From contig CP136062.1 in the NCBI GenBank assembly GCA_032622095.1, forward strand, positions 141,626,351 to 141,690,350: a stretch of DNA of 64,000 nucleotides, written 5' to 3'. A program made the position numbers and the translations under genes. Shown here piece by piece: positions 41,187-64,000 of the stretch; position 1 is the first letter of the stretch; each line of letters begins with the position of its first letter. The DNA comes from Siphonodentalium dalli. Its lineage: Eukaryota > Mollusca > Scaphopoda > Gadilida > Siphonodentaliidae. The notes below the pieces were generated by a model. That model was not told where the DNA came from. It searched no databases and worked only from the letters and a program-made list of their open reading frames with translations.

Positions 41187-41189
41187 GAT

Positions 41190-42863: not shown

Positions 42864-44579
42864 GGTGAAGTGTAATTCCCTAGAACAGTATATCAATACT
42901 TTTTCAACTACAAACTGTGGAACACAAATTACTATTTCTTACAATACTTAAGAGCTGTAAATATTAAGTTCACTTGTATATTATGGTGCGCTAGAACATG
43001 TACTTACTTTTATCCGTTGGGCGTGTTGGGTCGATTTATCTATAGGTAACTTATAGGTATTCACAGGTAAATTGAGACATTGAAATTGAATCAAAATCCT
43101 GGTTCCGTGCCTACCAGAATTATAAACTAAACATTAGTTCACCATTCACATAAAGAGGAACATCTAACTTTTATAGGGTAATGATTCTGACAAAGTCTGC
43201 ATGGGGCGTATGTAGTTTCGAACTAATCTGCCACATATATTGTGGCCTGCTGAACTGTTCCTCCACCAAGCAAAATAATTTTCTGACATGCATGGGAAGG
43301 GAAAAATATCGTATAATGTAGAGGGGATCTTATTGATTTGGCTATATATTGCCCATTCAATGTTTTCAGCAAATAATTGGAAGGGTATTGGTGTTTTTCA
43401 GCAATCCTAAAGTCGTCAGTGCCGTCCTAATGTCGCCAGCTTGAAAAAAAAGGCTTTTATATCAACACGGAGAAGTAACGATGGAAGATAGGTAACTCTA
43501 AATGAACTTCACACCCTCTCTTCCACGATGTAACCCAACTAGAAAGTAAACAATCACGGTTTTAATGTACACCTATTTTTCGATAATATTGTCGCCAGTG
43601 ATTGCTTCCAGCTGGGTACAAACATAGTACTTACGAAATATGTTTATTTCTGTGAGAACATATACGTATGCCGTTTGATGGCAGTGATTACTTTCGATTT
43701 GTGGCGAGATAATTGATCTTTCTAAACACGCGACACTTGAACTTATTTTGCCTCGCACTAGAACGAGATTAACTGACGACATTACATAGGTGACGACTTT
43801 ATGTCGATGTACGTTAGATTGCAATTTTATATGAGCATATTGGATGAGGGTGCACATGGGATTGAACATAAGTTATATAACTTAGATTAGTTCCTCTTCC
43901 TGTTCACTGAAGATCACCGAGCTACTATGTATCTGAAATGTGTAAAATAGTGTAGAATACGTTGAAATTCCGATACTGAATATGATAATTAATAAAAACT
44001 TGGCATAAGTTGCTGTGGCCCATGTTACTTACGTTGGGCAATACTCAATTCGTATATTCGGTCATGAGGACGTGAAGAATTACAATACCCCCTCCCTGTG
44101 TTGAACCATCGCACCTAACTGGATCAGAAAGCCTCTAATTTGAATGTCCTCTTATATGGAAATTAGTGTCAATATGAGTTTCAGTGAAACGTAAGATAAC
44201 ATAGCACATGTCGTTTATTCGCTATAGGTATGTGTCTAATACTGATATGAACTATTGATAAGAAGTTTTGGTCACCGTTGGCCGATATATTTTCTGGGCC
44301 TGGAATTTGATGAATGTCGCCGCACCTAATCAATAGAATTTCTTGATTCGGTTCCGGCGTATCAAATGAAAAGTCCCTATCGAGTTTCTCCGTTTACTAA
44401 TTCTTCAAGAGCCATTCGAGATGGTGTTATAATTCATTCGTCCGTACGTCCATCCGTGTGTGAGTACTTGTGTCCGACCGAGCAAATATCGCAGCCAGGG
44501 GTTGTTGGATCTGAGTGAAATTGACATGGTTGGCAAACAGGAGGCCTTTTAAAAGACGTTGTTCGCATTTTCTGTTCTG
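42864..44579. other. Gene-free spacer, copy 1
   Basis: Contains several GTCGTCAG / GTCGCCAG words (43,411, 43,431, 43,591 and inverted near 43,774). No gene supported. Confidence 0.5.
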
Positions 44580-44620
44580 TTGTGTATAACAAATATCCTT
44601 TTCGTATCTATATATAAACA

Positions 44621-44759
44621 AATGGGCGGTCTCTTGGTGCTTACATTTTTGTACCTCGTTCCGGTCGTGTCGTGTACAGATATTTCTCAAAATGGTAGCT
44701 ATCTAATGCCAAAATCTAGTGATTATTGTGTGAATGGGTGGTTTCGCCTACTTGTCTGA
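44621..44759 (+). other. Signal-peptide-like reading frame, repeat R1a
   Basis: MGGLLVLTFLYLVPVVSC followed by TDISQNGSYLMPKSSDYCVN looks like a cleavable signal peptide and a short secreted stub, possibly a first exon. The block from about 44,580 to 44,740 recurs at 47,562-47,722, where one extra T in the T run breaks it, and in copy 2 (57,520 and 61,018, interrupted). It may be a small dispersed repeat rather than a gene. Confidence 0.35.
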
Positions 44760-46620
44760 TGTCTTGATCTTTGAACACACAAAAAGAAATCGCATGCAAC
44801 AATTCTAATCCCGCTTTCTATAAGCCATAATTATATCAGTCCATCGTCAAAGCTTCATTGGAAGACTCGCGTTGCAGGGATGCGAGTACAAATGTCCTAC
44901 TGAAGCATAACAGTACGATGATAAAACAAAATCGTTGCATGCAAGACTTGTGGTGATCACTGGTCGGAGAAGGCCGGCCCCTTAGATCGAATATTTTGTT
45001 TTTACAAATTTCCCAATGTATACATTTTATGACCACTGTTTTTACTATAACTCTAAATCCGTGTCTTTGTTTCAGTTCAAGATACAAACCATAATGAACT
45101 ATCAGGTTTAAATGAGGTAGCAATCAACGATTTCTGGTCATTTTCACAATTTTGAGTGGTTACTGTACTACAACCTTCTGCTGCACCATGGTCATTGACA
45201 AACAGCACACGAATGTTTGGCTACAAGAGACAGAAAATGCACTAAGCATTCAACTGTCTGTACTTTGACTGGACTGTCACATCACAAATTGAATTATCTC
45301 CCTTAGACTGTCCATGCAATACACCAATTTTTAACCATTGTTTGGCCGAAAGTGGTCGTCTTCGGCCCCATAGTTAACCATGACAGAGCGAATGTCAGTC
45401 TATGGTCACCTTGTGAGCAGATAGAACCTAGATAGATGTAAGATGTTTTAAAAACTAAAGACAAATTATCGTATCAATTTTGAAATTTTGTTTTGGAACT
45501 GGAGAAGACTGTTTTCAAGGGAGATAAATCAAGCTCTTTTCCGGTGTATTACCACATTGAGCTGGTCCACACCAGATACGAAACACATATATCGTAATTC
45601 AAACATCATCCCATTTTGTGAACTATGGTATCTTTATAAAATAATTAAACCATTAAAACAGTACTCACATTAATAACAAATGTCGAACTGACAGTTACAG
45701 CCCTTATATGCTTAAAATCCTATTTTTCAGCCCTCCTACAACCCCATGAAATCGTGTATGGATACTTGAACTATAACGCATAGTATTGTCGATGACAGTG
45801 TTGCCGTGCACGAACGTGCTTATGTAGCCTAAATTGTTTATTTCAGATGGTTGGAACTAATATTTTGCCTGAATTTCGGTATGTTTGTTCTGTCAGTCAC
45901 ATGCCCCTTGTTTCGAATTTACAAAACACCACATTTCCACCACGTTCTTTTGACGATATTTGACCCAGAAGCAAACAATGGCAAAGCGAATGGCAGCAAA
46001 TAATCATACCATCGCATGTTAGAACTATGCTGGCATTAACCTATATTGGAATTAGAAATAAACCCATCGCAGTGGTTGGCTCTCAATGCCTTTTCCTTCA
46101 GAAATAATGCAGCGGTCAGAAGTGTTATAAATGCGGATTCTAGTTTCCCTACACGCATTCCAGAAGCGCAGCTCTAATGATTGAGTTACATGTAACCATG
46201 CATATGGCAATATAAATTGTAACATTATATACGTCGAACGTGTGCGCGTGCCAGGGAATACCCAAAACAAATGTGTGTCATAAATCTAACTCAGAACCGA
46301 AAGCATTCAGTTTTAGTTTTCAGTAATATATTCATACGCTTAACATCTGATGCATCTATACAATTCGCTTGTTTAATTGACATTATACTCAATTTTACAC
46401 CGCGCTCAGTGAAGCGAGTAAATACTTCAAATTCACGGAGCAAGTGGGAAGCGCCGATGCATGTTGTGACACGAATTTGATTGCAACGCAAAGTAAACAC
46501 TTCATTGCCACTCGAAAGCTGTGTTGTAGTACTCGAAAGATCGCCGAACCAATCAAATAGCGTTGATTAGGCGGAACAGAGGCCACTACGTTCTTGTAAA
46601 AACACCCCCGTCCAGACCCC
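44760..46620. other. Gene-free spacer, copy 1
   Basis: A TTTGTTTCAG acceptor-like site at about 45,073 is followed by QDTNHNELSGLNEVAINDFW and a stop. This could be a terminal exon, but nothing supports it beyond that. Otherwise no gene. Confidence 0.4.
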
Positions 46621-46627
46621 GTGCAAG

Positions 46628-46635
46628 TATATAAA
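46628..46635 (+). promoter_or_regulatory. TATA box of nanos, copy 1
   Basis: TATATAAA about 107 bp before the ATG; the counterpart in copy 2 is TATATATAAAT at 60,099. A conserved leader follows. Confidence 0.65.
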
Positions 46636-46734
46636 CCCAGATTGGTTTCATATCAAACCATATCATTCGTTCACTGTCACTCGATCGTTCTAAATCATAA
46701 CCATTTCAGTCGAAAATTAGAAATTATCATCATT

Positions 46735-47359
46735 ATGTCATCAGTTGCAGGCATCGACATGAAAGGGGGACTTTTTGGTTTCCTTATAGATTCAGCGTTT
46801 ACGTTCAGTGATCAGGATATTTCACAATCGCATGGGAAAATAACCAGGTCGTGTGTATATCAACACATCTCGAGTACCTTGCTTCAATTCGATCGAACGC
46901 CACAGATGATTTCAATGTGAATGGCACGGAGGTCGACCTTGACGACTATGATTCCTACCAAGCTCAACTGAGGGGTCACAATGTCAGCAGTTCCATTCTG
47001 TTTTCTATGGGGTGTGATGCAGCGACAGATTCGAAAGACAAGAAAGGAATCAAGCGAGCATGTGCCGAAGCCGTTCTGCCCCAAACAAGAGACCGGTAGT
47101 GAACAGTTTAAGGAACAAATATTGCGTTTTCTGCAAACACAGTAAAAAGCCAGCACGGTTGTACAAAAGTCACCTTGTAAAAGACGACAATGATGTAGTT
47201 ATCTGTCCCATTCTCCGACGGTACAAGTGCCCTCTATGTGGTGTTAATGGTGACAACGCTCACACGATCAAGTATTGTCCATCATACGACGGGATATCCA
47301 TGAGCGTTGCCGTAGCCAGGAGAAGAAAGTTCGACAGCAAGAGAGTCAGGCCTTCATGA
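46735..47359 (+). CDS. nanos: Nanos zinc-finger protein, copy 1 (putatively two short introns)
   Basis: Post-transcriptional repressor of germ-line and stem-cell mRNAs, acting with Pumilio and the CCR4-NOT complex in the cytoplasm. The ATG at 46,735 opens MSSVAGIDMKGGLFGFLIDS. A middle part reads DFNVNGTEVDLDDYDSYQAQ. The C-terminal finger pair spans about 47,120-47,290: CVFCKHSKKPARLYKSH, then CPILRRYKCPLCG, NAHTIKYCP. This fits C-x2-C-x12-H-x10-C-x7-C-x2-C-x7-H-x4-C exactly, the Nanos signature. The three parts are in three frames. A GT-AG segment at about 46,853-46,905, and another from 47,012 or 47,014 to 47,106 or 47,099, would join them. Small protein of about 160 residues. A recognisable NOT1-binding motif is not evident. 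Confidence 0.85.
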
Positions 47360-47403
47360 GCTGCAAGCCATATTAGCACACGCTATGTGTCTAAAGGCCC
47401 GTT

Positions 47404-47790
47404 TTGTTTAAATATTATTCAATTGTTATATATATGCCTTTAATTTATGTTGGTGCGCATGTAAATTTGAAACATGCGCACAATTTGTATTGTATAAATA
47501 AACAATTTGTAATGAATTATATGCAAAGAAGCTTTTACATATTAGGCAATAAAATTGTGTATAACAAATATCCTTTTCGTATCCATATATAAACAAATGG
47601 GCGGTCTCTTGGTGCTTGCATTTTTTTGTACCTCGTTCCGGTCGTGACGTGTACAGATATTTCTCAAAAATGGTAGCTATCTAATGCCAAAATCTGGTGA
47701 TTATTGTGTGAATGGGTGAACAACGCCAGACCAGCTTAACCTCTGAGGGGGGTGTTTCTTATACAGTTTAATTGCACTCAGTTAAGAATA
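47404..47790 (+). other. Nanos 3' region and repeat R1b
   Basis: AATAAACAATTTGTAATG near 47,497 could serve polyadenylation. 47,562-47,722 is the second copy of the signal-peptide-like block, with its frame broken by an added T. Confidence 0.45.
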
Positions 47791-48280
47791 AGTATAATTG
47801 GGGTGGGGTCCATTTTTGTTCTGTGGACCTGTGTCGAGAAATGGCATGGGTCGCCCATTTTACACCGGGTTGGGTTGTGGGGCCACCATACAACACTCTT
47901 TGTATGAACTAAATATGTCAAGGGGTGCTTGAAGGGGCCGAGAAATTGCATGGGTACCTAGTTGAACCCCTCTGTACGGCAGCCTTTTTGGGTCGGGTGG
48001 GTGTGTGGTGAATATTTGTATTGTCTTTGTGTGCCACCATACACCACTCTGTTTGACATAAATCGGTTAAGGGCCAAGAAATGTCATGGGTCCATATATG
48101 ACTCCCTCTGGACGCCGGCCATTTTTGGATCGGGCGGGGTAAGTGGAGTGAATATTTAGATTGGTTTGGGGTCCGCCCTACAACACCATTTGTCAAAAAA
48201 CTGAATAGGTCAAGGGGCCCTATTTGAACCCATCTGGACATGCAGTGGCCATTTTGGAGCGGGGTTGGTGTGTGAATAGA
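47790..48280. repeat. Degenerate tandem repeat of about 150 bp, copy 1
   Basis: Three to four units share GGCATGGGTC / CATGGGTCC, CCACCATACAACACTCT and a GGGTCGGGTGGG-like stretch. Conserved in copy 2 at 62,460-62,945. Confidence 0.65.
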
Positions 48281-49019
48281 GTGCCTTGTTTAAAACTCTA
48301 AAACATCCTTTGTTTGGCCAAAATATAAAAATTTCGAATAAGGAATGGAATTCACTTCGTGCTGTTCGAGTCATGAATGGGGAGGGGCACCAAAAACTGA
48401 TAGTGATACCATTATGTTTAGCTCTAGTTTCCACAAATGCATACACGTTATTCTCCAATGAATCAAATCATGTGAGTTAAAGACGCCACATGATTGATGA
48501 CCCAATATCAGGATGACCATGGCCCTCCCACGAACCAACTACATAAATATATATATATATATCCGAAATCGGTAAATTGCATTTGCTTCACGCCATTAGG
48601 TTAGATAGTTTTCGAATTACTGGCTCATCTAACTGTCGGAAATATAGCGAACATTTTGCAAAGCTGCAAAATATGAGGAGTGTTGCACACTTAAATTCCT
48701 AGCAAAAACTTAGGGTCTCCAGATTCTTAATAGGGAAAAACCCACCCCGTGCTCACTTCGCTAACACAACATTAGTTCATATGTTATGGGCAACATTTGA
48801 GCGGAATATCATTTGTCATGGAACTTAATATATATATTTTTACACGCTTGTTCCCAGAAGTACAGTGTTAAAGCTGTTCCATATTTACAAATACGTATGG
48901 ACCGTGCGTTCCATACGCGTCTCGTTGACGTAAAATGACGTTCGCCTCAACCATGAAACCGGAACTATAATATAAAAGCATCATCACACATGACAAAACA
49001 CGCCCTCTATGTGCCTCTT

Positions 49020-49081
49020 GTTGTCGCGGAAGGATAGAACTCGAGACGCAAGCGCCTCTCGTTCTATCCTTCCGCGACAAC
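49020..49081. repeat. Short perfect-arm hairpin, copy 1
   Basis: GTTGTCGCGGAAGGATAGAA+C and its exact complement, separated by 20 bp (49,041-49,060), which is itself partly palindromic. Present in copy 2 with a better-paired inner stem. Confidence 0.85.
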
Positions 49082-49290
49082 ACTCGTGCCGTATCGACAA
49101 ACCCATTTACACATCGTGTCGTTCTGTGTATATATCAAGACATGTATATTTGCTATACATGATAACTATAAAGAGCGATTGTTTCACTCACGTGTGGGAA
49201 TCTGATAACAGCTGGTGAATTTATGTGGTTTGAGTGACGGGGTTCGAGGGTTCCGTTGGTGGTGTCCCACTTATAATTTTCAACTACCAC

Positions 49291-51126
49291 ACCCCTTGAA
49301 CCAGTCTAAATTTCGTTATTTGACACCACCCCTCCCCGTGAGCGAAATTTTCCAACTATAATAGTACCACACATTTCAACATGATAAATGAACCCCTGTT
49401 GGTTGTATGGAACTTGTCCAAATGATGGTGATGTTAGTCCTAACATAAATTGGTCAAATATTTGGGAAATATAGACTTGGTCTCAAAATAACTAATCACA
49501 CACTATAGATTTTGTTGGTAAAACTATCCAACAATGTTAACCTGTTTGTGGCCTGAAGTATCTAACTAAATTTAATGTTGTTTCAGACATAAGATTTCCA
49601 ACTGTTCAACAAGGTGATGATCGTTGGTTGGGGGGGGGGGATGAGACATATCCACCCCTGTTGCCATGACATTGCCCCCGAATGACGTCGGTTCTCTCAC
49701 TATATACACGGTACATCCGTGTATTAGTTTATCGTGTTTTATTGAAGCCATTTTGATTGCCATAATGTACCAAAAAATCAATAAATTATTTTTGTTTATT
49801 TCCGCTATATCTCCCAATTGGATATATGTTCGGTTTATGGATCGATTTTTTAAATGGCCTTCTCAATTCGATCTGACGAAATACCGTCCACATGCTATCC
49901 AAATATCCAATAATTCATGCAAGAGCACATACTCGTCCCGTTATCTCCACAATCAGCTAATTAAACTGACCGGCATTTATTCTTACTGATTAATGACAAC
50001 TCAGTGGGCGTTCATACATGGCTTTGACAACTCACGGCAGTTTCAGATTGGATACGGCCATCGTTGGGCCAGGCCAAGTCCAAGTCTTCTCGTACTAAAA
50101 CCAGCTATGATATTGGGATGGCTAGATGTTGACATTTAGTCCGAGTTCGCGCCCTATACATTCTTATGACACGAGTTAAGCGTTAAAAAAATGACCCGCT
50201 CAAATAAAACCACAATTATATGAAATAAAATATCACAATTGCGACAATAAACGGATATTTTCCGCAGAAGACATGCTATTTGATCTGAAACCCACATCAG
50301 TTGTGAATTGAAAGCGGTAATTTAATGTTAAAAAAGACATTTACCGCAGTGTTTACATATTTTTAAAAGTATGCGAATTCAGTTGACCTCGCGAACTGTG
50401 TTCGGCACGTTCCGTTGAAAATATTCCGTAGATTTTCGGCTATATATAACCACGCACATGACGATGAATTCTCCATTGTAATCGTAATACATTATATAAA
50501 TTACGGGAATTACAACCCTCTCACAGTTTAAAACAATGTAAACACAACGAGCATTAGAATTCTATGGGGTCTGCCATTTTGTTTGTACTGGACTATGCGG
50601 AAGTTCTTCGTAACACTTCGGCTTTCAGTTAAAACGTAAAAAAAAATAAAAAACAGCGATGTCGGTGACAATCAACCGGAATATTCTATGCGTAATTTAA
50701 AATGAAAGTTAGATTATTATACATCATTACGACCATAATATGTCACTCTTTCCTATGTATATAGCATCATGTATTGATTTGTTAGGTAAATCGAGTAAAA
50801 TACACCACAGATTCCCGCCACAGATCCTGGGCGCAACTCGTGTCATAAGAATGTATAGGGCGCGAACTCGGACTAAATGCCAGCATCTAGCCATCCCAAT
50901 ACCTTAGCTGGTTTTAGTACGAGAAAACTTGGACTAGACTAGGCCAGGCCAGGCAAAGGTGTAGCTTTGTTTAATGATTTGGAGTATGTTTGGATGAATG
51001 TACATGAATGACGATCGTTGGGGGGGGGGGGGCATGTGACAAATCACCCCCGTGTCGCAATGACATTGTCCCTGAGATTGCCTGAATGAATTTGGTTGTA
51101 CATTAGTTTAGTATGTATTGTTTGTG
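49291..51126. other. Spacer between the duplicates
   Basis: No gene. 49,612-49,740 and 51,008-51,125 resemble each other (GATCGTTGG + G-run, then CCCTGTTGCCATGACATTG-like). Between them sits the foldback element at 50,066-50,954. Confidence 0.6.
50066..50954. mobile_element. Foldback element with TIRs of about 115 bp
   Basis: 50,066-50,181 (GGGCCAGGCCAAGTCCAAGT ... TTCTTATGACACGAGTT) is the reverse complement of 50,833-50,954 with a few mismatches. The interior, about 650 bp, has no transposase frame. Confidence 0.8.
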
Positions 51127-51457
51127 CTGAACCGATTCCTAATATTCCAACGCCAATCGATCGAGAAAACGCTATATTTTACAAAGTTGCTTCTTGCTTC
51201 ACAATTCTTGGATAAACTGCTCGACAACTTATGAAACAGACGATGAACAATGATTGGAATAAACAATCAATCAAGCTGCGCCGGTGCATCATTAAAGATC
51301 ATTTACCTGTGCATTATCTTATATGTGCGTACATGTAGCCTCGCATATAATATAAGAGAATGCACTGTCTAACCAGGTCGAGGTAAATATTTTAAGGCTC
51401 TTATATATGCGAGGCTCCATATGGGAGAAAATAAATATGAAGCCCCCCTGTCCGCAA

Positions 51458-51676
51458 ACGCTTCTATCAATTAATATTGATTATATTTAGAATTTTCTGG
51501 TATAATCAATTGTACAATCAATTTGGGACATTCCAGGCCCCGCGTTCGTTCTGAGCGTAGCATGAGCGATAGCTCTATCTAAAACATCTTAAATGGTAAC
51601 GAAAAAATGTCCCACTTGGCCATCGCATTATGTAAGAAAATATCGATATAAAATCAATACTAATTGATAGAAGCGT
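51458..51676. mobile_element. 220-bp MITE, copy 2
   Basis: Counterpart of 38,467-38,686 with both terminal repeats intact, so it predates the duplication. Confidence 0.75.
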
Positions 51677-53136
51677 GTCCGGAAAGGTGTCTTCGACTCA
51701 TATTTACTATTTTATACTCCGGAAACCAGATACACGTATTTAGGAAGGGATAGACCATCTTTAACTCCAGTGTGGACTAATCAATCTAATCCAAAGTTGG
51801 CATGTCAGTTTCTCAGCCAAAAATACATATCAAGTTCGAATATGGGTTCTGTCCAGTGATTTCGGCATGAGTTACGACTTCGAAATTACATGTAGATATA
51901 CAAATGTACATGTGCCTGCATGATTTAATAACATTTTGGTTTGCAACATATTTACGCAGTTCGGAATATTTTATTGGAAGTTTGTATAGAAATACAGGTC
52001 GACAAGTTCAACTATGGCTTCAGATCAACGCGTTTTGCACGAGTGGTGCAGACACTTTTCAGACTTGGAATTTATCCAATTTGAAAACATATTTGGTTTC
52101 TGACTGATAACTCCAGATTTGGTTATTTTCTCGCAACTAAAATTGGTACATGTGTGCTTCAAAACTGCAGGCAACTTCAACGTTTCGAATATGGGTAGGG
52201 TCCTCCGTTGATTTTGCACGAGTTCTATAGCCCTTCTCAACATAATTAATCCGAGTTGATGTAATTTTTAATGAGTTTAACAAACTGGCGTATTTAGCCA
52301 CGCCCAAGCGATGCTCTTGATTTTGGAACATTTAGTTCCGATAGTTACTATAGATGTTTTCATTTTATTATTTATTTTGAAATTAAAATAGTTTGATATA
52401 TTTTAGCATTGCTTACTCTCTAAATTGAAGTCGTGACAATGATAGCCTCAGACCCGTTTGTCTCCGGCATGTGGTAATAAAGAGTGTTTGATTAATCATT
52501 TCTTTAAACGGTGAAAACAAAGAGCGTTCGTCTACATTATGCGATAAACGTTGATTGCAGTTGATAAATATTTCCGACTTTGTTGAGTATTTCTCATGCA
52601 TACAAATTCTGTATAAATAAGTATTTCAGATATTGATCGGCCTATTTTGTTAACAGGAACGCCACAAAAGCAAGGCATTCCTAAATTTAGTTATTAACCC
52701 ACTTGCAGGTTGGGGATATACATGATTTGTTTGAACATATTTATTGTGACCCAAATATTACAACACCCTAAAGGACATCGACCTATAGTCGTCAGTTTTT
52801 ACGTACCGTTTAAATTTCGAAATGGCACGAGCACACGGAACGCAGTCCATAGAACTAAATATTCACAAAATCATTCCTTTTCTTGGAAAACACAATATAC
52901 CAACACTAGTCCAGATCGAAGTAGTATAAAACAGAACTTTTATGTGAGTACCCACGACCTGACGACTCAATGATGGGGGTAACATAAAGTCGGCAAGGCA
53001 TACTATATTGAGTCGCCATACCCGACCTATAGTCGTCAGTATGTAAGTTAAACAAAAACAAAGAAACTATGAATCGTGAACAATTATTTATTGTAGTTAT
53101 GAATCGTGATTCTGATTAACGGAAAGTCTCTTGCAG

Positions 53137-53236
53137 CTTCCTCGAATGCCGCGACGTATACATCTGCCACGAGAAAGACGGTCACGCACAGCTGTTGCGG
53201 CCCAGTTCGTCTGCTCAGAAGTATGCAAATAACTGA
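53137..53236 (+). other. Candidate terminal exon, copy 2
   Basis: Same frame as 40,151-40,250, ending KYANN. It is preceded by GTCTCTTGCAG. Only weakly supported as coding. Confidence 0.3.
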
Positions 53237-53580
53237 ATTTAATTACAAATCAGACGAGCTATGTCATGAATATCTCGTTTTATTTGTTCATACAACGATT
53301 TGCTTCATTATTAGATAGATTCCGAGTGATATTTTAAAGAAACTGGATTTTGCGAACATCATGCGTGCCTTTGAGCTATAGTTCCAAGAAGAAACAGTGT
53401 ATTTTCATTGTCGAATATCCAATAATCGCCAAAGAACATTAACATATCATACCCACAGCGAATGTCCACATAAAATAGTGACTTTCCTCTGAAGTAACAC
53501 ATCTCGCCCATGAATATAAACGTGCCACAGAATTAAAGTCCACATCCTTCAGTAATTAGTGCGAATGCAGCTAGACTTGA

Positions 53581-54087
53581 TCAATCATCGTTGTGCTTTC
53601 CTTTGATGATGTTAACGAACTCATTGTAATTGAAGTGTCCTCCGGAGATTGGTGCTTCCTTCCACGTCCGCGCGATTTCGTCCTTAGTGAAGTTATCTCC
53701 CATGTTTTGAAGCAGATCTTTGAGGTATGCTTCCGGAATTGTTCCTTTCCCTTCCTCGTCGAACATTTTGAAAGCATCAATGAGTGTGCTCTCGGAATCC
53801 GTCCCGCCGATTTTCTCGCCAAACAGGGTCAGAAACATCGTGAAGTTAAGCGGACCCGGGGCCTCTTTCAGCATCTCTTTAAGATCCTTGTCGTTCGGCG
53901 TCTTCCCGAATTGCGAATATATTTCCTTCAAATCAACCAACTCGATCAATCCATCTCTATTAGAATCGATCACAGAGAAAGCCTCTTTAAGTTCCTGCAT
54001 AACTTTCTGTGGGAGTTTGGTGAAGGCTCCTGAAGCGCATTGTTTCGTCTTGTCAGCCATTTCGATTCTTGATTTCGATATCGACAA
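53581..54087 (-). CDS. Myosin regulatory light chain (EF-hand), copy 2
   Basis: Same role as copy 1. All 168 residues are identical to copy 1, although about thirteen codons differ at the DNA level, every one silent (for example CCT/CCA, ATA/ATC, GAT/GAC, GAG/GAA near 53,650-53,690). The family-typical ATG is at 54,060. The first EF loop is intact, DSNRDGLIELVD. Flanking non-coding sequence carries substitutions and indels, so coding constraint is acting on both copies, or gene conversion has been recent only in part. Intronless. Confidence 0.92.
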   Translation of the reverse strand: MSISKSRIEMADKTKQCASGAFTKLPQKVMQELKEAFSVIDSNRDGLIELVDLKEIYSQFGKTPNDKDLKEMLKEAPGPLNFTMFLTLFGEKIGGTDSESTLIDAFKMFDEEGKGTIPEAYLKDLLQNMGDNFTKDEIARTWKEAPISGGHFNYNEFVNIIKGKHNDD

Positions 54088-54147
54088 CAGGAACGTATGT
54101 CAGCCAGCGAATTGTGAGGTTTGGTGATGCATTCAGAGTCGGATCCT

Positions 54148-54158
54148 CTTATATAGGG
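54148..54158 (-). promoter_or_regulatory. TATA box of light chain gene, copy 2
   Basis: CCCTATATAAG on the minus strand, at the same spacing as in copy 1 although the bases just upstream differ. Confidence 0.65.
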
Positions 54159-54989
54159 GATATTTGACCATACATACCCGCCGGGTAGCAGGAGCCCATC
54201 GCAAACCCTCTGGTGGCATATGTGACGTCATGCTGGGCACAGAACCCGGTGTATGGCAATAGTCTTATCTGTTACGGTCAACTAATTGGATATATGTTAA
54301 TTGGGTATAATACCGGATAATGATGTCATAATTATGTTATATCAACGTCCGTCTTACATATTAATTCAGGAATAAACATCCCGCGTATGAGGGCTGCTGG
54401 GTATAGGCATTCATGCTCCATACCCACATCTTGTCCCTGTTTTCAATCTGTGGGGTTTCTATAATTCAGGAATTAGTAATAATTCATAAACGACCATCCC
54501 TTTTATCTGTCCATGCAAGCACCACGCCCGATGTCAGTCCATGCATGCTATCAATCTATGGGTAACCGCAGAGCGATTTTAGTCTAGACGCGGTTGCTGG
54601 TCCAGATTGCGGTTTAAATATATATTCAGGGTTTCAGACGTCCGATTACAACATAGTAATTATATCATATTACCTTCTGTTGAAAAAATGCAGAAAACTG
54701 AATATGACTTATAAACTAGACCTAAAATACCAAAGAATATAATTAAGTTATTGAAAATTTGACCAATAAATTGTTGTTGTCCCTTTAAAACAACGAAATT
54801 GTCTGAAATATTTGCATTGAAAATTCAATATCAAACAAAATAACGCATTTTACGTGGCACTTCTTGTTCCGAACATGCTATTCTATACATACATTTGTAA
54901 GATTCAAAATAAAAGGTAATTATGTCATATATCATAATAATTAGTCTGGAACCCTGAATACATCTTTAATATTTTGGACATGCATAGGG

Positions 54990-55834
54990 TTATTTTGAAG
55001 TCCATGTTTGCAAAAGATAAGATATTGTGACCACGTTTTGACTCAGAACTACTGGCCTTGATGACGGTCGAATATAGCCGTTGGACTTGGATCTTTCAAT
55101 ATCCAACAGAGCAGTAACACAAGCAGCGACGTCTGGTGTCAGATTGCCAACTTTATTGGTACCGTCGAACACGGCAACAGTATTCTTGTCGTGCCCCGTT
55201 TGATTCTCGCATTAGGCGGACATCATCAGGGGTGGTCAAAACGTTAGCCATTTTTTTTGTGGGATAAGCCCGGCGGTTACCAATGGGTGCTCTCGTTTTT
55301 CGAGTTGTTGAGATTAGCTTTCCTGACAATTATTGTTGTCACTGCATTGGAGCTTAAGACGCTTTCATGATTGAATGGTATTGAATTGAAGATCTGCGTG
55401 CACTTTGAATGCTTCTTTATAAAAGCGCTTTTTTGTGGATTGATCGAGCATTCAATCGCTAGGCTGGGTGGGCAATCCCCAGACGTGGTCACACCACCAT
55501 CGGCACAAATACTGGCATCGCTGGCGACTACACGCGATTCTTGGTTACCGTGCCCACATGCCACGTTGATAATTCCGTCTTCACATATACAAACATTGAT
55601 TGGTTTGTCCTCTTTGTCTGGTGGATTGGCGACTGCTGTTCTGCAAGACTTGTAGTTTCATCATCCTGTTCATCTTGGATTTCTTGTTCGCTTCCCAACG
55701 ATACGTCTAGGTTAATGTTATTTGGACCAGCGTCACTAGAACAACAACATAGTAACATCACAGTCTCATCACAGTTATATATTTTGCTCCGGATTATATC
55801 GCAAGACATTCGATTCGAGTGTTGTCCCCAATAA
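54990..55834 (-). pseudogene. Decayed minus-strand gene of unknown function, copy 2
   Basis: Counterpart of 42,010-42,863. It has the same segments in the same discontinuous frames, plus an extra lesion: the TGG in ANVWTTPD is TGA here. An in-frame insertion (NNINL) separates the cysteine segment from its acidic tail. The function is unknown. Confidence 0.4.
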
Positions 55835-57519
55835 GGTGAAGTGTAATTCCCTAGAACAGTATATCAATACTTTTTCAACTGCAAACTGTGGAACACAAAT
55901 TACTATTTCTTACAATACTTAAGAGCCGTAAATATTAAGTTCACTTGTATATTATGGTGCGCTAGAACATGTACTTACTTGTATCCGTTGAGCGTGGTTG
56001 GGACGATTTATCTATAGGTAACTTATAGGTATTCACAGGAAAATTGAGACATTGAAATTGAATCAAAATCCTGGTTCCGTGCCTACCAGAATTATAAACT
56101 ACACATTAGTTCACCATTCACATAAAGAGGAACATCTAACTTTTATAGGGCAATGATTCTGACAAAGTCTGCATGGGGCGTATGTAGTTTCGAACTAATC
56201 TGCCACATATATTGTTGCCTGTTGAACTGAAAATACTTTTCTGACATGCATGGGAAGGGAAAAATATCGTATAATGTCTTATTGATTTGGCTATATATTG
56301 CCCATTCAATGTTTTCAGCAAATAATTGGAAGGAAATTGGTGTTTTTCAGCAATCCTAAAGTCGTCAGTGCCGCCATAATGTCGCCAGTTTGAACAAATA
56401 AATAAATCGCTTTTATATCAACACGGAGAAGTAACGATGGAAGATAGGTAACTCTAAATGAAATTCACACCCTCTCTTGCACGAAGTAACCCAACTAGAA
56501 AGTAAACAATCACGGTTTTGATGTACACCTATTTTTCGATAATGTTGTCGCCAGTGATTGCTTCCAATCAATGTTTATTTCGGTGAGAACGTACGTATGC
56601 CGTTTGATGGCAGTGATTACTTTCGATTTGTGTCGAGATAATTTATCTTTCTAAACACGCGACACTTGAACTTATTTTGCCTCGCACTAGAACGAGATTA
56701 ACTGACGACATTACATAGATGACGACTTTACGTCGATGTACGTTAGATTACAATTTTATATGAACATATTGGATGAGGGTTCACATGGGATTGAGGGATT
56801 GAACATAAGTTATATAACTTAGATTAGTTCCTCTTCCTGTTCACTGAAGATCACCGAGCTACTATGTATCTGTAAAATAGTGTAGAACACGTTGAAAATC
56901 CGATACAGAATATGATAATTAATAATAACTTGGCACAAGTTGCTGTGGCCCATGTTACTTACGTTGGGCAATACTCAATTCGTATATTCTGCCATGAGGA
57001 CGGGAAGAATTACAATACCCCCTCCCTGTATTGAACCATCGCGCCTAACTGGACCAGAAAGCCTCTAATTTGAATGTCCTCTTATATGGAAATTATTGTC
57101 AATATGAGTTTCAGTGAAACGTAAGATAACATAGCATATGTCGATTATTCGCTATATGTATGTGTCTAATACTGATATGAACTATTGATAAGAAGTTTTG
57201 GTCACCGTTGGCCGATATATTTTCTGGGCCTGGATTTTGATGAATGTCGCCGCACCTAATCAGTAGTATTTCTTGATTCGGTTCCGGCGTATCAAATGAA
57301 AAGTCCCTATCGAGTTTCTCCGTTTAATAATTCTTCAAGAGCCATTCGAGATGGTGTTATACTTCATTCGTCCGCACGTCCACCCGTATGTGAGTACATG
57401 TGTCCGACCGAGCAAATATCGCAGCCAATGGTTGTTGGATCTGAGTGAAATTGACATGGTTGACAAACAGGGGGCCATTTAAAAGACGTTGTTCGCATTT
57501 TCTGTTCTGTTGTGTATAA
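55835..57519. other. Gene-free spacer, copy 2
   Basis: Matches 42,864-44,579 with several deletions (for example around 56,225 and 56,565). No gene. Confidence 0.5.
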
Positions 57520-57665
57520 CAAATATCCCTTTCGTATCTATATATAAACAAATGGGCTTGCATTTTTGTACCTCATTCCGGTCGTGTCGTGTCGTGTACA
57601 GATATTTCTCAAAATGGTAGCTATCTAATGCCAAAATCTAGTGATTATTGTGTGAATGGGTGGTT
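57520..57665 (+). pseudogene. Signal-peptide-like block R1a, copy 2, deleted
   Basis: Lacks the GGTCTCTTGGTG stretch, so the hydrophobic core is lost. The rest, from TTGCATTTTTGTACCTC on, is present. Confidence 0.5.
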
Positions 57666-59239
57666 TCGCCTACTTGTCTGATGTCTTGATCTTTGAACAC
57701 ACAAAAAGAAATCGCATGCAACAATTCTAATCCCGCTTTCTATAAGCCATAATTATATCAGTCCATCGTCAAAGCTTCATTGGAAGACTCGCGTTGCAGG
57801 GATGCGAGTACAAATGTCGTACTGAAGCATAACAGTACGATGATAAAACAAAATCGTTTCATGCAAGACTTGTGGTGATCACTGGTCGGAGAAGGCCGGC
57901 CCCTTAGATCGAATATTTTGTTTTTACAAATTTCCCAATGTATACATTTTATGACCACTGTTTTTACTATAACTCCGTGTCTTTGTTTCAGTTCAAGATA
58001 CAAACCATAATGAACTATCAGGTTTAAATGAGGTAGCAATCAACAATTTTGAGTGGTTACTGTACTACAACCTTCTGCTGCACCATGGTCATTGACAAAC
58101 AGCACACGAATGTTTGGCTACAAGAGACAGAAATGCACTAAGCATCCAACTGTCTGTACTTTGACTGGACTGTCACATCACAAATTGAATTATCTCCCTT
58201 AGGCTGTCCATGCAATACACCAATTTTTAACCATTGTTTGGCCGAAAGTGACCGTCTTCGGCCCCATAGTTAACCATGGCAGAGCGAATGTCACTCTATG
58301 GTCACCTTGTGAGCAGATAGAACATAGATAGATGTAAGATGTTTTAAAAACTAAAGACAAATTATCGTATCAATTTTGAAATTTTGTTATGGAACTGGAG
58401 AAGACTGTTTTCAAGGGAGATAAATCAAGCTCTTTTCCGGTGTATTACCACATTGAGCTGGTCCACACCAGATACGAAACACATACTTCGTAATTCAAAC
58501 ATCATCCCATTTTGTGAACTAAGGTATCTTTATAAAATAATTAAACCATTAAAACAGTACTCACATTAATAACAAATGTCGAACTGACAGTTACAGCACT
58601 TATATGCTTAAAATCCTATTTTTCAGCCCTCCTACAAACCCATGAAATCGTGTATGGTTACTTGAATTATAACGCATAGTATTGTCGATGACAGTGTTGC
58701 CGTGCATGAACGTGCTCATGTAGCCTAAATTGTTTATTTCAGATGGTTGGAACTAATATTTTGCCTGAATTTCGGTATGTTTGTTCTGTCAGTCACATGC
58801 CCCTTGTTTCGAATTTACAAAACACCACATTTCCACCACGTTCTTTTGGCGATATTTGACCCAGAAGCAAACAATGGCAAAGCGAATGGCAGCAAATAAT
58901 CATACCATCGCATGTTAGAACTATGCTGGCATTAACCTATATTGGAATTAGAAATAAACCCATCGCAGTGGTTGGCTCTCAATGCCTTTTCCTTCAGAAA
59001 TAATGCAGCGGTCAGGAGTGTTATAAATGCGGATTCTAGTTTCCCTACACACATTCAAGAAGCGCAGCTCTAATGATTGAGTTACATGTAACCATGCATA
59101 TGGCAATATAAATTGTAACATTATATACGTCGAACGTGTGCGCGTGCCAGGGAATACCCAAAACAAATGTGTGTCATAAATCTAACTCAGAACCGAAAGC
59201 ATTCAGTTTTATTTTTCAGTAATATATTGATACGCTTAA
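57666..59239. other. Gene-free spacer, copy 2
   Basis: Colinear with 44,745-46,345; no gene. Confidence 0.5.
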
Positions 59240-59824
59240 AGGGGTACTGTACGCCATTTGCATTAAATTTCCGGTGACAACAACGATCTAATATCGATAA
59301 TATATAGAAACATAAGTAATTTGAGTCGAAGATGTATTATGTAAACGCTCAGGTTAATATGCTATCTTAAAATTTAATAATTTAAAAGTTTTAATAATTT
59401 GATATAAATTGAATTTATGACTGGAGCCATAAAATGGCGTCAATTAAATTACGAATTTCCGTAATCAAAATAAAGTAATTGAGGGATACTGGATGTTAAA
59501 CCGATCGCACACACGATTGCTTAAAATATTATAATGATACTGGGAGAACACTCAAGTCACTCACTGACTAGCGACGATACAATAACTTAAATGATTATAT
59601 TGGACTAGTATGCCTATAATATAACTTTTATTTGATTCATTTGGTTGAAAACTGTACAAAAATTACTCGACAACGACAATTTGTATTTTTGCATTCCGGT
59701 AAATTTGTCATCCGTAACACTACTTCGTACTCAACAGACTTTCAAATAATGAAAAAATTGTTACCGTATTCTCTGACTCGGAGACTATAGAAACCAACAA
59801 CAACATTTGGCGTACAGTACCCCT
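59240..59824. mobile_element. Complete TTAA-flanked MITE, unique to copy 2
   Basis: Terminal repeats AGGGGTACTGTACGCCA and the exact complement TGGCGTACAGTACCCCT. Flanked by TTAA on both sides, where copy 1 has a single TTAA (CGCTTAACATC at about 46,337). Precise TTAA duplication is the signature of piggyBac-type transposition. No coding frame. Confidence 0.88.
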
Positions 59825-60098
59825 TTAACATCTTATGCATCTATACAATTCGCTTGTTTAGTTGACATTATACTCAATTTTACACCGCGCACAGTGAAGC
59901 GAGTAATACTTCAAATTCACGGAGCAAGTGCATGTTGTGACACGAATTTGAATGCAACGCAAAGTAAACACTTCATTGCCACTCGAAAGCTGTGTTGTAG
60001 TACTCGAAAGATCGCCGAACCAATCAAATAGCGTTGATTAGGCGGAACAGAGGCCACTACGTTCTTGTAAAAACACCCCCTGCCAGACCCCGTGCAAG

Positions 60099-60109
60099 TA
60101 TATATAAAT
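60099..60109 (+). promoter_or_regulatory. TATA box of nanos, copy 2
   Basis: TATATATAAAT about 109 bp before the ATG. It is slightly expanded relative to copy 1. Confidence 0.65.
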
Positions 60110-60207
60110 CCAGATTGGTTTCATATCAAACCATATCATTCGTTCACTGTCACTCGATCGTTCTAAATCATAACCATTTCAGTCGAAAATTAGAAATTAT
60201 CATCATT

Positions 60208-60819
60208 ATGTCATCAGTTGCAGGCATCGACATGAAAGGGGGACTTTTTGGTTTCCTCATAGATTCAGCGTTTACGTTCAGTGATCAGGATATTTCACAA
60301 TCGCATCGGAAAATAACCAGGTCGTGTGTATCAACAAATATCGCTTGCTTCAATTCGAGCGAACGCCACAGATGATTTCAATGTGAATGGCACGGAGGTC
60401 GACCTTGACGATTATGATTCCTACCAAGCTCAACTGAGGGGTCAAAATGTCAGCAGTTCCATTCTGTTTTCTGTGGGGTGTGATGCAGCGACAGATTCGA
60501 AAGACAAGAAAGGAATCAAGCCTTTCTGCCCCCAAATAAGAGACCGGTAGTGAACAGTTTAAGGAACAAATCAAAAGAATATTGCGTTTTCTGCAAACAC
60601 AGTAAAAAGCCAGCACGGTTGTACAAAAGTCACCTGGTAAAAGACGACAATGATATAGTTATCTGTCCGATTCTCCGACGGTACAAGTGCCCTCTATGTG
60701 GTGTTAATGGTGACAACGCTCACACGGTCAAGTATTGTCCATCATACGACTGGATATCCATGAGCGTTGCCGTAGCCAGGAGAAGAAAGTTCGACAGCAA
60801 GAGAATCAGGTCTTCATAA
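60208..60819 (+). CDS. nanos: Nanos zinc-finger protein, copy 2 (putatively two short introns)
   Basis: The ATG at 60,208 gives the same MSSVAGIDMKGGLFGFLIDS start. The finger region (about 60,580-60,750) keeps all eight ligands of the CCHC-CCHC pair. Differences from copy 1 in the C-terminal part are few: V/I, I/V (HTVKYC), G/W after SYD, and an in-frame three-codon insertion before YCVFC. The putative first intron (60,326-60,371) is 7 nt shorter than in copy 1, yet the phase across it is the same; the second corresponds as well. Both copies could encode full proteins if these introns are real. Otherwise both share the same two frameshifts. Confidence 0.83.
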
Positions 60820-60855
60820 GCAGCAAGCCATATTAGCACACGCTATGTGTCTAAA

Positions 60856-61098
60856 TGCCCGTTTTGTTTAAATATTATTCAATTGTTATATATATGCCTT
60901 TAATTTATGTTGGTGCGCATGAAAATTTGAAACATGCGCACAATTTGTATTGTATAAATAAACAATTTGTAATGAATTATATGCAAAGAAGCTTTTACAT
61001 ATTAGGCAATAAACTTGTGTATAACAAATATCCTTTCGTATCCATATATAAACAAATGGGCGGTCTCTTGGTGCTTGCATTTTTGTACCTCGATCCGG
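60856..61098 (+). other. Nanos 3' region and repeat R1b, copy 2
   Basis: Matches 47,404-47,640. The signal-peptide-like frame MGGLLVLAFLYLDPV is intact up to the point where the 61,099 insert interrupts it. Confidence 0.5.
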
Positions 61099-62316
61099 TG
61101 TAACACGTCATCTCCCCCCCCCCCCCCCAGGATATCTCCCCTAACCATAAGATTATTTTTTTGTCATGTAGGTGCTAGATGGGGGAAGATATCCTGACCT
61201 GGACATCTCCCCCTCCCCCACCCCAAACCCTGACTCAAAAAACTTTTTCTCAGAAGAAGTTAATTTCTCGCTGTTTCATGACTATATAAAGCAAAAACAA
61301 GCGATAAAACCATAAGATTAATTTTTTGTCATGTAGGTGCTGGGTGGGGGGAAGATATCCTGACCTGGACATCTCCCCCCCCCCACCCAAACTCTGACTC
61401 AAAAAACTTGTTCTCAGAAGAAGTTAATTTCTCGCTGTTTCATGACTATAAAGCAAAACAAGCGATAAAACCATAAGATCATTTTTTTGTCATGTAGGTG
61501 CTGGGTGGGGGGGGGGAAGATATCCTGACCTGGACATTTCCCCCCCCCCACCCCAAACCCTGACACAAAAAACTTGTTCTCAGAAGAAGTTAATTCCTCG
61601 CTATTTCATGACTATATAAAGCAAAACGAGCGATAAAACCATAAGATTATTTTTTTGTCATGTAGGTGCTGGGTGGGGGGGGGGGGGGGGAGATATCCTG
61701 ACCTGGACATCTTCCCCCCCCCACCCAAACCCTGACTCAAACAACTTGTTCTCAGAAGAAGTTAATTTCTCGCTGTTTCATGACTATATAAAGCAAAACG
61801 AGCGATAAAACCATAAGATAATTTTTTTGTCATGTAGGTGCTGGGTGGGGGGAGATATCCTGACCTGGACATCTTCCCCCCACCACAAACCCTGACTCAT
61901 GAATATATAAAGCAAAATAAGCGATAAAACCATAAGATGATTTTTTTGTCATGTAGGTGCTGGGTGGGGGGGGGGGGGTGGAATATCCAAGCCTGGACAT
62001 TTGAAAGAAAAGAAAAAATTGAATTAAAAAAAAACATTTTTCTGGTCAATGAACAGACAATCAAATTCGTTAAAACAATAATTTAGTCACTTTTTTTTTT
62101 TAAATAAAAAAAAAATTAATATATATTTTTTTTAATCTCAAAAAACATTTTTCTGGCCATTTCAGAACCAAACGATATCAAATGAGTGAAATTATTTTTT
62201 AGTCGTACATGGGGGGGGGGGGAAGATATCCAGGGTGGGGGAAAGATATCCTAGGATATCTTCCCCCCCGGGGGGGGGGGGATATATCCAGGGGGGGGGG
62301 AGATATCCCTGTTACA
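61099..62316. mobile_element. 1.2-kb GC-run insert with internal satellite, unique to copy 2
   Basis: Begins TGTAACACGTCATC and ends CCCTGTTACA. Flanked by CCGG on both sides where copy 1 has one (TTCCGGTCGTG at about 47,636). The interior holds six tandem units anchored on AACCATAAGAT at 61,143, 61,308, 61,469, 61,637, 61,809 and 61,928. Each unit has a C-run, a G-run and GATATCCTGACCTGGACAT. Its last 110 bp are stacked G-runs around GATATCC. No protein frame. Confidence 0.8.
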
Positions 62317-62459
62317 CCGGTCGTGTCGTGTACAGATATTTCTCAAAATGGTAGCTATCTAATGCCAAAATCTAGTGATTATTGTGTGAATGGGTGAACA
62401 ACACCAGACCAGCTTAATCTCTGAGGGGGTGTTTCTTATACAGTTTAATTGCACTCAGT

Positions 62460-62945
62460 TAAGAATAAGTATAATTGGGGTGGGGTCCATTTTTGTTCTG
62501 TGGACCTGTGTCGAGAAATGGCATGGGTCGCCCATTTTACACCGGGTTGGGTTGTGGGGCCACCATACAACACTCTTTGTATGACCTAAATATGTCAAGG
62601 GGTGCTTGAAGGGGCCCAGGAATTGCATGGGTCCCTTAGTTGAACCCATCTGGACGGCAGGCTTTTTGGGTCGGGTGGGTGTGTGGTGAATATTTGTATT
62701 GTCTTTGTGTGCCACCATACACCACTCTGTTTGACATAAATCTGTTAAGGGCCAAGAAATGGCATGGGTCCATATATTCATGATTCCCTCTGGACGCCGG
62801 CCATTTTTGGATCGGGCGGGGTAAGTGGAGTGAATATTGAGATTGGTTTGGGGTCCGCCCTACAACACCATTTGTCAAAAAACTGAATCGGTCAAGGGGC
62901 CCTATTTGAACCCATCTGGACATGCAGTGGCCAGTTTGGAGCGGG
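62460..62945. repeat. Degenerate tandem repeat of about 150 bp, copy 2
   Basis: Counterpart of 47,790-48,280. Confidence 0.65.
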
Positions 62946-63227
62946 GTTGGTGTGTGAAAAGAGTGCCTTGTTTAAAATTCTAAAACACCCTTTGTTTAAC
63001 CAAAATATAAAAATTTCGAATAAGGAATGGAATTCACTTCGTGCTGTTCGAGTCATGAATGGGGAGCGGCAACCAAAACTGATAGTGATACCATTATGTT
63101 TAGCTCTAGTTTCCACAAATTCATACACGTTATTCTCAAATGAAGCAAATCATGTGAGTTAAAGACGCCACATGATTGATGACCCAATATGATCACGATG
63201 GCCATGGCCCTCACACGAACCAACTAC

Positions 63228-63229
<2 letters not shown>

Positions 63230-63288
<59 letters not shown>
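63230..63288. repeat. Expanded (AT)n microsatellite
   Basis: Nearly thirty AT dinucleotides. The same site in copy 1 (about 48,545-48,562) has fewer than ten. Confidence 0.95.
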
Positions 63289-63290
<2 letters not shown>

Positions 63291-63743
63291 AAATCGGTAA
63301 ATTGCATTTGCTTCACGCCATTAGGTTAAATAGTTTTCGAATTACTGGCTATTCAAACTTTCTAACAGTCGGAAATATAGCGAACATTTTGCAAAGCTGC
63401 AAAATATGAGGAATGTTGCACACTTAAATTCCTAGCAAAAACTTAGGGTCTCCAGATACTTAATAGTGAAAAACCCTCCCCGTGCTCACGTCGCTAACAC
63501 AACATTAGTTCCTATGTTATGAGCGGAATATCATTTGTCATGGAACTTAATATATATATTTTTACACGCTTGTTCCCAGAAGTACAGTGTTAAAGCTGTT
63601 CCATATTTACAAATACGTATGGAACGTACGTTCCACACGCGTCTCGTTGACGTAAAATGACGTTCGCCTCAGCCATGAAACCGGAACTATAAAATAAAAG
63701 CATCATCACACACGACAAAACACGCCCTCTATGTGCCTCGTGC

Positions 63744-63801
63744 TGTCGCGGAAGGATAGAACTCGAGGCGCAAGCGCCTCTCGTTCTATCCTTCCGCGAC
63801 A
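63744..63801. repeat. Short hairpin, copy 2
   Basis: TGTCGCGGAAGGATAGAAC ... GTTCTATCCTTCCGCGACA, with the inner stem GAGGCGC-AA-GCGCCTC now fully paired. The stem is about 28 bp with two mismatches and a two-base loop. Confidence 0.85.
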
Positions 63802-64000
63802 ACACTCGTGTCGTATCGACAAACCCATTTACACATCACGTCGTTCTGTGTATATATCAAGACATGTGCACTTGCTATACATGATGACTATAAAGAGCGA
63901 TTGTTTCACTCATGTGTGCGAATCTGATAACAGCTGGTGAATTTATGTGGTTTGAGTGACGCGGTTCGAGGGTTCCGTTGGTGGTGTCCCACTTATAATT

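What the first reader, a model, noticed from the sequence alone, without database searches (positions are those of the whole stretch)
46735..60819. Tandemly duplicated nanos, both copies with intact fingers
The finger array fits the Nanos spacing exactly in both copies. In each copy the protein lies in three frames. The 7-nt length difference between copies falls inside the first proposed intron and leaves the phase across it unchanged, as expected of an intron and not of coding sequence. Nanos is usually single or low copy, so a linked pair inviting germ-line subfunctionalisation is notable. The introns would be very short (about 46-53 and 86-95 nt) with weak consensus.
Basis: partly seen in the sequence, partly recalled or inferred. 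Interest (0 to 1): 0.8.

Follow-up and report, generated by a model that had tools for sequence, protein, structure and literature searches.

The report
Two dead nanos copies, hundreds elsewhere
The two nanos germ-cell genes seen side by side are broken relics related to a huge gene array: this animal's genome holds at least 270 nanos-type sites, mostly in long tandem arrays of intronless genes, where animals are thought to have only a few.

Summary
In detail: two ~94%-identical tandem segments each carry a complete Nanos CCHC-CCHC finger pair. The proposed introns are frameshifting indels. A ~95%-identical relative fills a tandem array on another chromosome (C1:129.37-129.91 Mb) as one uninterrupted 210-codon exon (23 of 25 assessable copies). 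Against it copy A carries +2, -1 and -9 nt, copy B -5 and -16, and a third neighbouring copy -5. Nanos differences between segments show no significant constraint, while the myosin light chain gene in the same segments differs only synonymously (Fisher p = 9e-5). The pair are passenger pseudogenes in a duplicated light-chain segment.

The larger discovery lies outside the window: at least 270 nanos-type sites in eight subfamilies, against PUF (Pumilio) repeats found at one place. Thirteen of 15 measurable intact pairs, all within subfamilies, have dN/dS 0.19-0.39. Seven subfamilies share a central motif. The CNOT1-binding motif reaches 4 of 5 residues only in array-2 and one single gene, and is at chance level in the largest array. 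No expression data, organism name or second genome.

The parts
46735..47359 (+). nanos pseudogene, copy A (relic of the array-1 subfamily)
   Evidence: 95% identical to C1 array copies; +2 nt at 46856-46857, -1 nt after 47078, -9 nt after 47117 relative to L013
47123..47278 (+). CCHC-CCHC Nanos finger pair of copy A
   Evidence: spacing match; PF05741 83.7 bits on the enclosing frame
60208..60819 (+). nanos pseudogene, copy B
   Evidence: -5 nt after 60343 and -16 nt after 60517 relative to L013
60583..60738 (+). CCHC-CCHC Nanos finger pair of copy B
   Evidence: spacing match; PF05741 82.8 bits on the enclosing frame
44580..47718 (+). one array-1 repeat unit plus ~160 bp of a second (period about 2975) in segment A
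   Evidence: aligned with the C1 array locus L013; ends 44580-44740 and 47555-47718 are 95.7% identical direct repeats
57510..62396 (+). the same repeat unit in segment B, interrupted by extra DNA at about 59240-59824 and 61100-62316
   Evidence: alignment with L013 and with segment A
40609..41127 (-). myosin regulatory light chain gene, single open frame (the first 13 codons precede the ATG), segment A
   Evidence: best solved matches are regulatory light chains, E 3e-58, scallop and squid type (sources partly recalled); EF-hand families
53581..54099 (-). myosin regulatory light chain gene, segment B
   Evidence: 13 nt differences from segment A, all synonymous
38133..51126 (.). tandem segment A (light chain + nanos relic)
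   Evidence: self-alignment
51127..64000 (.). tandem segment B; runs on to about 68990 in window numbering, where the third segment begins
   Evidence: self-alignment of window + following 20 kb
46628..46635 (+). TATATAAA upstream of copy A (promoter-like; counterpart in B at 60101)
   Evidence: exact string; promoter role inferred, motif recalled
47548..47553 (+). AATAAA downstream of copy A (poly-A-signal-like; counterpart in B at 61008)
   Evidence: exact string; role inferred, motif recalled

Best explanation
Window copies: decayed relics of an intronless nanos gene, whose frame is broken between the start and the fingers. One repeat unit of about 3.0 kb (plus ~160 bp of a second) shared with the C1 nanos array lies beside a myosin light chain gene on C2. 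It was multiplied as a passenger when the 13-18 kb light-chain segment duplicated in tandem, and lost its reading frame at least twice independently (A by +2 and -1; B and the third copy by a shared -5, B also by -16), while the light chain stayed under strong selection. Whole genome: nanos has been amplified into at least 270 sites in eight subfamilies. Two are long homogenised head-to-tail arrays whose unit carries a single-exon gene, intact in most copies examined (168 sites outside C2 match the array-1 probe; 54 lie in array-2). Most plausible working (inferred): the intact copies make Nanos-like proteins that bind RNA through the fingers, probably with Pumilio. They are kept by purifying selection and homogenised by unequal exchange or gene conversion, giving high dosage and/or specialised germ-line or embryonic functions. 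Shown: copy numbers as assembled, open frames, finger conservation, frameshifts, dN/dS within subfamilies. Inferred: transcription, tissue, partners, direction of the C1-C2 transfer, and use of array-1, for which no pairwise dN/dS could be measured.
For: Single-exon relatives at 95% identity. Indels and substitutions: A 6 syn/9 non, B 5/13, third 5/13 against L013; A-B 5/12, A-third 5/12, B-third 0/8; none differs significantly from neutral (p 0.12-0.57). Light chain 13/0, 16/0, 18/0, Fisher p 9e-5 for A-B and 2e-5 for A-third. Array unit with terminal overlap in C2. Genome counts 171+56+20+7+6+5 by pattern, every reversed-pattern control 0, plus 4 (C5:23.7, C5:249) and 1 (C2:48.85). Open frames of at least 210 codons in 131 of the 147 C1:129 rows listed (recounted). 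dN/dS 0.19-0.39 in 13 of 15 measurable pairs, including array-2 against its C1:97 relative (0.22). Between L013 and copy A's unit the coding part differs by 2.6% and the DNA on either side by 6.0% and 5.4%, a sign of past constraint on the gene. 62 of 63 proteins examined keep the eight finger ligands (truncated copies left out). PUF repeats found at one place only.
Against: For array-1 itself there is no measurable pairwise dN/dS: against s7 and array-2 dS is saturated. Within each array the constraint is weak and not significant alone (array-1 22 non/11 syn, p 0.10; array-2 7/4, p 0.17; pooled 0.037), so recent amplification of inert DNA is not excluded. One pair (L034-L035) has dN/dS 2.7 (1 syn, 10 non; p 0.26), another (L001-L002) 0.61. 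Copy A against the array gives a ratio of 0.43 (p 0.12), not a clean neutral value. No RNA, reads or second species. Array lengths rest on one assembly. The sampled array copies were not drawn at random (top hits plus chosen places).
Confidence: 0.85

Rival explanations
1. One reading: two working, spliced nanos genes with two tiny introns each, subfunctionalising.
For: Fingers intact and start region present; TATA- and AATAAA-like strings kept; GT-AG combinations restoring a frame exist, 54 one-intron solutions for A and 41 for B.
Against: The same region is uninterrupted coding sequence in 23 of 25 assessable array-1 copies; A and B differ from it by different small indels; no significant constraint; GT-AG rescue works as well for the undamaged gene and for 43 of 60 artificially damaged ones.
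Confidence: 0.04
2. The long arrays are satellite DNA that happens to contain a nanos frame; intact frames reflect recent amplification, not use.
For: Near-identical units; weak, individually non-significant pN/pS within arrays (0.58, 0.45); no measurable pairwise dN/dS for array-1.
Against: Ten within-subfamily pairs with dS 0.1-0.9 have dN/dS 0.19-0.39, one of them array-2 against C1:97; coding part of the array-1 unit less diverged from the C2 relic than its flanks (2.6% against 6.0% and 5.4%); 131 of 147 listed array-1 rows open.
Confidence: 0.15
3. Reverse direction: the C2 locus, a nanos gene flanked by ~160-bp direct repeats, was the founder, and unequal exchange between those repeats produced the unit of the C1 array.
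For: The C2 unit has ~160-bp direct repeats one array period apart; no disabling change is shared by all three C2 copies.
Against: A partial second unit is also just what a piece cut from an array would carry; the 4.3 kb left of the array's left edge has no match to the window or the next 20 kb (right edge not examined).
Confidence: 0.2
4. Copy numbers are inflated by assembly (uncollapsed haplotypes or repeat stutter).
For: One assembly only; no reads available.
Against: Sampled units differ by substitutions and spacing; eight divergent subfamilies on six contigs cannot be one artefact.
Confidence: 0.06
5. The C2 relics act as RNA: sense or antisense transcripts, or small RNAs, tuning the 95%-identical array.
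For: High identity to the array; promoter-like region kept.
Against: No direct evidence; the immediate flanks of copy A differ from the array at 11 of 175 and 6 of 270 places, and no test for constraint on RNA was made.
Confidence: 0.04

Closest known systems
Nanos family (Drosophila Nanos 5kl1/5kl8, zebrafish Nanos 3alr)
   Same: CCHC-CCHC finger pair with identical spacing; 52-63% finger identity of seven subfamilies to these two
   Different: Known animals carry a few genes (recalled); here at least 270 sites in eight subfamilies, a shared motif before the fingers in seven of them and, in several, no CNOT1-binding motif above chance. Whether the central motif exists in other animals was not tested
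Duplicated (non-processed) pseudogene
   Same: Copied as DNA with its flanks, frameshifted, no significant constraint
   Different: Carried as passenger by a selected neighbour, with a large array of relatives on another chromosome
Homogenised coding arrays (histone clusters; Stellate and other ampliconic genes, recalled; drive papers seen in search listing only)
   Same: Head-to-tail near-identical units each with one small intronless gene
   Different: The gene is of a family of germ-line translational repressors; no sex linkage, expression or suppressor is known here

Membership tests
Nanos family | zf-nanos domain above the curated cut-off | tested here: met
   83.7 and 82.8 bits, cut-off 27; 150 of 150 scored genome sites above it, of 349 candidates
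Nanos family | Two CCHC fingers with the conserved spacing | tested here: met
   Both window copies; 62 of 63 proteins, exception L066; L024 also
Nanos family | CNOT1-binding motif F-x2-W-x-D-Y-x2-L (NIM; passages of PMC4003280, which says it is absent from some phyla) | tested here: inconclusive
   No row has all five. 4 of 5 in array-2 and C2:48.85 (0-2 of 500 shuffles reach it); 3 of 5 in the C5 s6 genes (34-77 of 500); 2 of 5 in array-1 (468-469 of 500)
Nanos family | Germ-line expression and action with Pumilio | not testable with these tools
   No RNA or protein data; PUF repeats present at C9:169.63-169.65 Mb
Working protein-coding gene (window copies) | Open frame from start to fingers, or credible splicing | tested here: not met
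   Frameshifts in A, B and the third copy relative to the single-exon gene; splicing itself cannot be tested without RNA
Processed (retro)pseudogene | Copy limited to the transcript, without promoter or flanks | tested here: not met
   Homology covers a whole ~3.0 kb unit including upstream DNA
Ampliconic drive system (Stellate-like) | High-copy tandem array of a germ-line gene | tested here: inconclusive
   High-copy tandem arrays present; the germ-line role is inferred from the family name only
Ampliconic drive system (Stellate-like) | Sex linkage, transmission bias, suppressor | not testable with these tools
   No population, sex or expression data

The most novel reading that the evidence does not exclude
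The amplified nanos clade is in conflict with, or has been diverted from, ordinary Nanos function. The largest array encodes a protein with target-binding fingers and the clade's central motif (F-x2-NG-x3-[DEN]-[LF]-D-[DE]-x-D-x-Y, with variants) but no deadenylase-recruiting motif above chance. It could act as a mass-produced competitor or re-wired repressor of the germ-line programme, amplified by an intragenomic arms race (drive and suppression) in which units also reach other chromosomes and die, as in this window.
Probability: 0.12. Interest if true: 0.88.

Novelty: new variant of a known kind. Interest (0 to 1): 0.62.

Why it matters
Nanos is a conserved germ-line determinant normally held at very low copy number (recalled). 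A genome with at least 270 nanos-type sites in eight subfamilies, many of them open, with PUF repeats found at one place, makes dosage, redundancy and germ-line conflict directly testable. The window itself is a clean natural control: one duplicated segment, one gene under selection (light chain) and one released from it (nanos).

Tried and rejected
Introns: rejected by comparison with array copies; GT-AG enumeration was uninformative. A first finger pattern used a recalled spacing that was wrong by one residue (0 of 44 matched, and its intron test was void); corrected from the Drosophila alignment. Rfam at gathering thresholds: no match in 87,929 bases. Organism: a search for nine-chromosome genome notes (25 of 26 listed, abstracts' beginnings only) showed none of 2.2 Gb; the light chain is closest to molluscan-type ones among solved structures (sources partly recalled), so a lophotrochozoan is likely but unnamed. 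Literature on large nanos expansions: (listings only; many hits are 'nano-' words) showed none by title or start of abstract; held papers only, so absence from print is not shown. Rows dropped: L037, L044, L055 (array-1), L068 (array-2) and L072 (C1:97) were cut wrongly by me, and L022 holds masked bases; none is in the intact counts.
Full report
WHAT WAS CHECKED. The window is C2:141626351-141690350 of an unnamed animal genome of 2.23 Gb in nine contigs. Both proposed copies exist. The finger frames score 83.7 and 82.8 bits against PF05741 (cut-off 27) and have the spacing of Drosophila Nanos (47123-47278 and 60583-60738; solved relatives of copy A are 5kl1, 5kl8 and 3alr). Self-alignment shows a tandem duplication: 38133-46343 with 51127-59239 (93.8%), 46340-47642 with 59825-61099 (93.8%), 47638-48562 with 62317-63247 (95.6%). 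A third segment begins at 68991 in window numbering.

THE INTRONS ARE INDELS. The genome holds relatives of copy A at 95% identity in a head-to-tail array at C1:129.37-129.91 Mb, unit about 2.98-2.99 kb. There the gene is one uninterrupted 210-codon ORF. Of 28 array-1 loci fetched (top hits and chosen places, not a random draw), three were cut wrongly by me; 23 of the remaining 25 have the full ORF, L016 and L054 do not. Relative to L013, copy A has +2 nt at 46856-46857, -1 after 47078 and -9 after 47117; copy B has -5 after 60343 and -16 after 60517; the third copy has the -5 alone. Hence A runs through three frames and B through two. No frameshift is shared by all three, so the frame was lost at least twice.

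SELECTION IN THE SAME SEGMENTS. Between segments A and B the myosin regulatory light chain frame (with 13 codons ahead of its ATG) differs at 13 nt, A-third 16, B-third 18, all synonymous. In nanos A-B there are 5 synonymous and 12 nonsynonymous changes, A-third 5 and 12, B-third 0 and 8, none significantly different from neutral (p 0.56, 0.56, 0.21). Fisher's test between the two genes gives p = 8.7e-5 for A-B and 2.3e-5 for A-third. The segment is kept for the light chain; nanos is a passenger. Four further light-chain copies, two with stops, lie at C2:141.73-142.22 Mb.

HOW THE UNIT GOT THERE. Segment A holds one array-1 unit (44580-47718) whose first and last ~160 bp are direct repeats one period (2975) apart. 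That fits a piece of about 1.05 units cut from the array and inserted in C2, or a C2 founder whose flanking repeats seeded the array. The 4.3 kb left of the array's left edge has no match to the window or the next 20 kb; the right edge was not examined. I favour the first, without proof. It is not a retrocopy: upstream DNA is included.

THE GENOME-WIDE AMPLIFICATION. Probes with up to 2 mismatches for array-1 and 3 for the others, reversed-pattern controls all 0, count: array-1 type 171, all one strand, three of them on C2 (only the first ~100 places are listed, and one search lists 147 on C1:129 and 3 on C2); array-2 type 56 (54 at C1:103.26-103.39, 2 at C1:97.11); s3 20 (18 on C4, 2 on C6); s4 7 (6 on C4, 1 on C3); s5 6 (C4); s7 5 (C5). 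Four s6 sites (C5:23.7, C5:249) and one s8 site (C2:48.85) come. Sum 270 sites, broken ones included, and a lower bound: the family search scored 150 of 349 candidates, all 150 over the cut-off. PUF repeats are found at one place only (6 matches, C9:169.63-169.65 Mb; 150 of 221 candidates scored, so others could be missed).

ARE THE COPIES USED? In one search, 131 of 147 C1:129 rows have an open frame of at least 210 codons and 16 are shorter (recounted). Of 15 C1:103 loci fetched, 12 are complete at 193 aa, one is broken (L070) and two could not be judged (L022 masked, L068 cut by me). Of 19 pairs compared, four have saturated dS (array-1 against s7 twice, array-1 against array-2, and the two s6 kinds). 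The other 15 are all within a subfamily: 13 give dN/dS 0.19-0.39, and the exceptions are L034-L035 (2.73; 1 syn, 10 non; p 0.26) and L001-L002 (0.61). So array-2 has a direct value (0.22 against C1:97) but array-1 has none. Indirectly, between L013 and copy A's unit the coding part differs at 16 of 623 places (2.6%), the upstream part at 95 of 1576 (6.0%) and the downstream part at 19 of 352 (5.4%), which points to constraint on the gene for part of that time. Within arrays the signal is weak: 11 syn/22 non in 23 copies and 4/7 in 12 copies; p 0.10, 0.17, pooled 0.037. The finger ligands are complete in 62 of 63 proteins, truncated copies left out.

PROTEIN ANATOMY. A tree of 23 rows separates s6 from the rest (100/100, but with long branches; the root is for drawing only) and joins array-1 with s7 (98/95). 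In the seven subfamilies other than s6 a motif of the form F-x2-NG-x3-[DEN]-[LF]-D-[DE]-x-D-x-[YL] precedes the fingers: my pattern finds it in 20 of 24 rows, missing the three s6 rows and L004, which has a local change. Whether other animals have it was not tested. The CNOT1-binding motif, positions F1 W4 D6 Y7 L10 (passages of PMC4003280), is complete in none. It is matched at 4 of 5 in array-2 and s8 (0-2 of 500 shuffles reach this), at 3 of 5 in s6 (34-77 of 500), s7 (75-104) and one s4 row (54), and at 2 of 5, chance level, in array-1, s3, s5 and the other four s4 rows. That paper says the motif could not be detected in Nanos of insects, flatworms, annelids or rotifers, so its loss does not exclude function.

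VERDICT. The finding as written is a pair of pseudogenes with intact finger modules. The lead is worth more than the claim: it exposes an exceptional amplification of nanos. Whether that is dosage, specialisation, conflict or (for the youngest units) neutral expansion cannot be decided without expression data and relatives.

Noticed in passing
window 1-16840: Fragments of non-LTR retrotransposon ORFs: reverse transcriptase (7620-8489, PF00078, 2e-23) and sub-threshold endonuclease matches (3207-3677, 6399-7109); 1-2190 and 3877-6062 are 97% identical.
   Followed up: partly
window 61143-61899: 172-bp tandem repeat, 4.6 copies, in the extra DNA that interrupts the array unit of segment B.
   Followed up: no
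window 36460-36718: Perfect tandem duplication of a 129-bp unit before segment A.
   Followed up: no
C2:141666962-142216040: Seven single-frame myosin regulatory light chain copies at 97-100% protein identity, two carrying stops; further copies at 90-93% on C3 and C4.
   Followed up: partly
L024 (C2:48851500-48852700): A nanos gene of its own kind (s8; only site seen) with both a near-complete CNOT1-binding motif (FQAMRDYFGL) and the central motif of the amplified clade; possibly close to its founder.
   Followed up: partly
L076, L077 (C5:18.58, C5:18.66 Mb): s7 copies whose longest ATG frame in the stretch cut is only 121 and 132 aa, so this small cluster also seems to contain damaged members.
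   Followed up: no
L066 (C1:103.329 Mb): Array-2 copy with the first finger cysteine changed to tryptophan though the frame is open.
   Followed up: no
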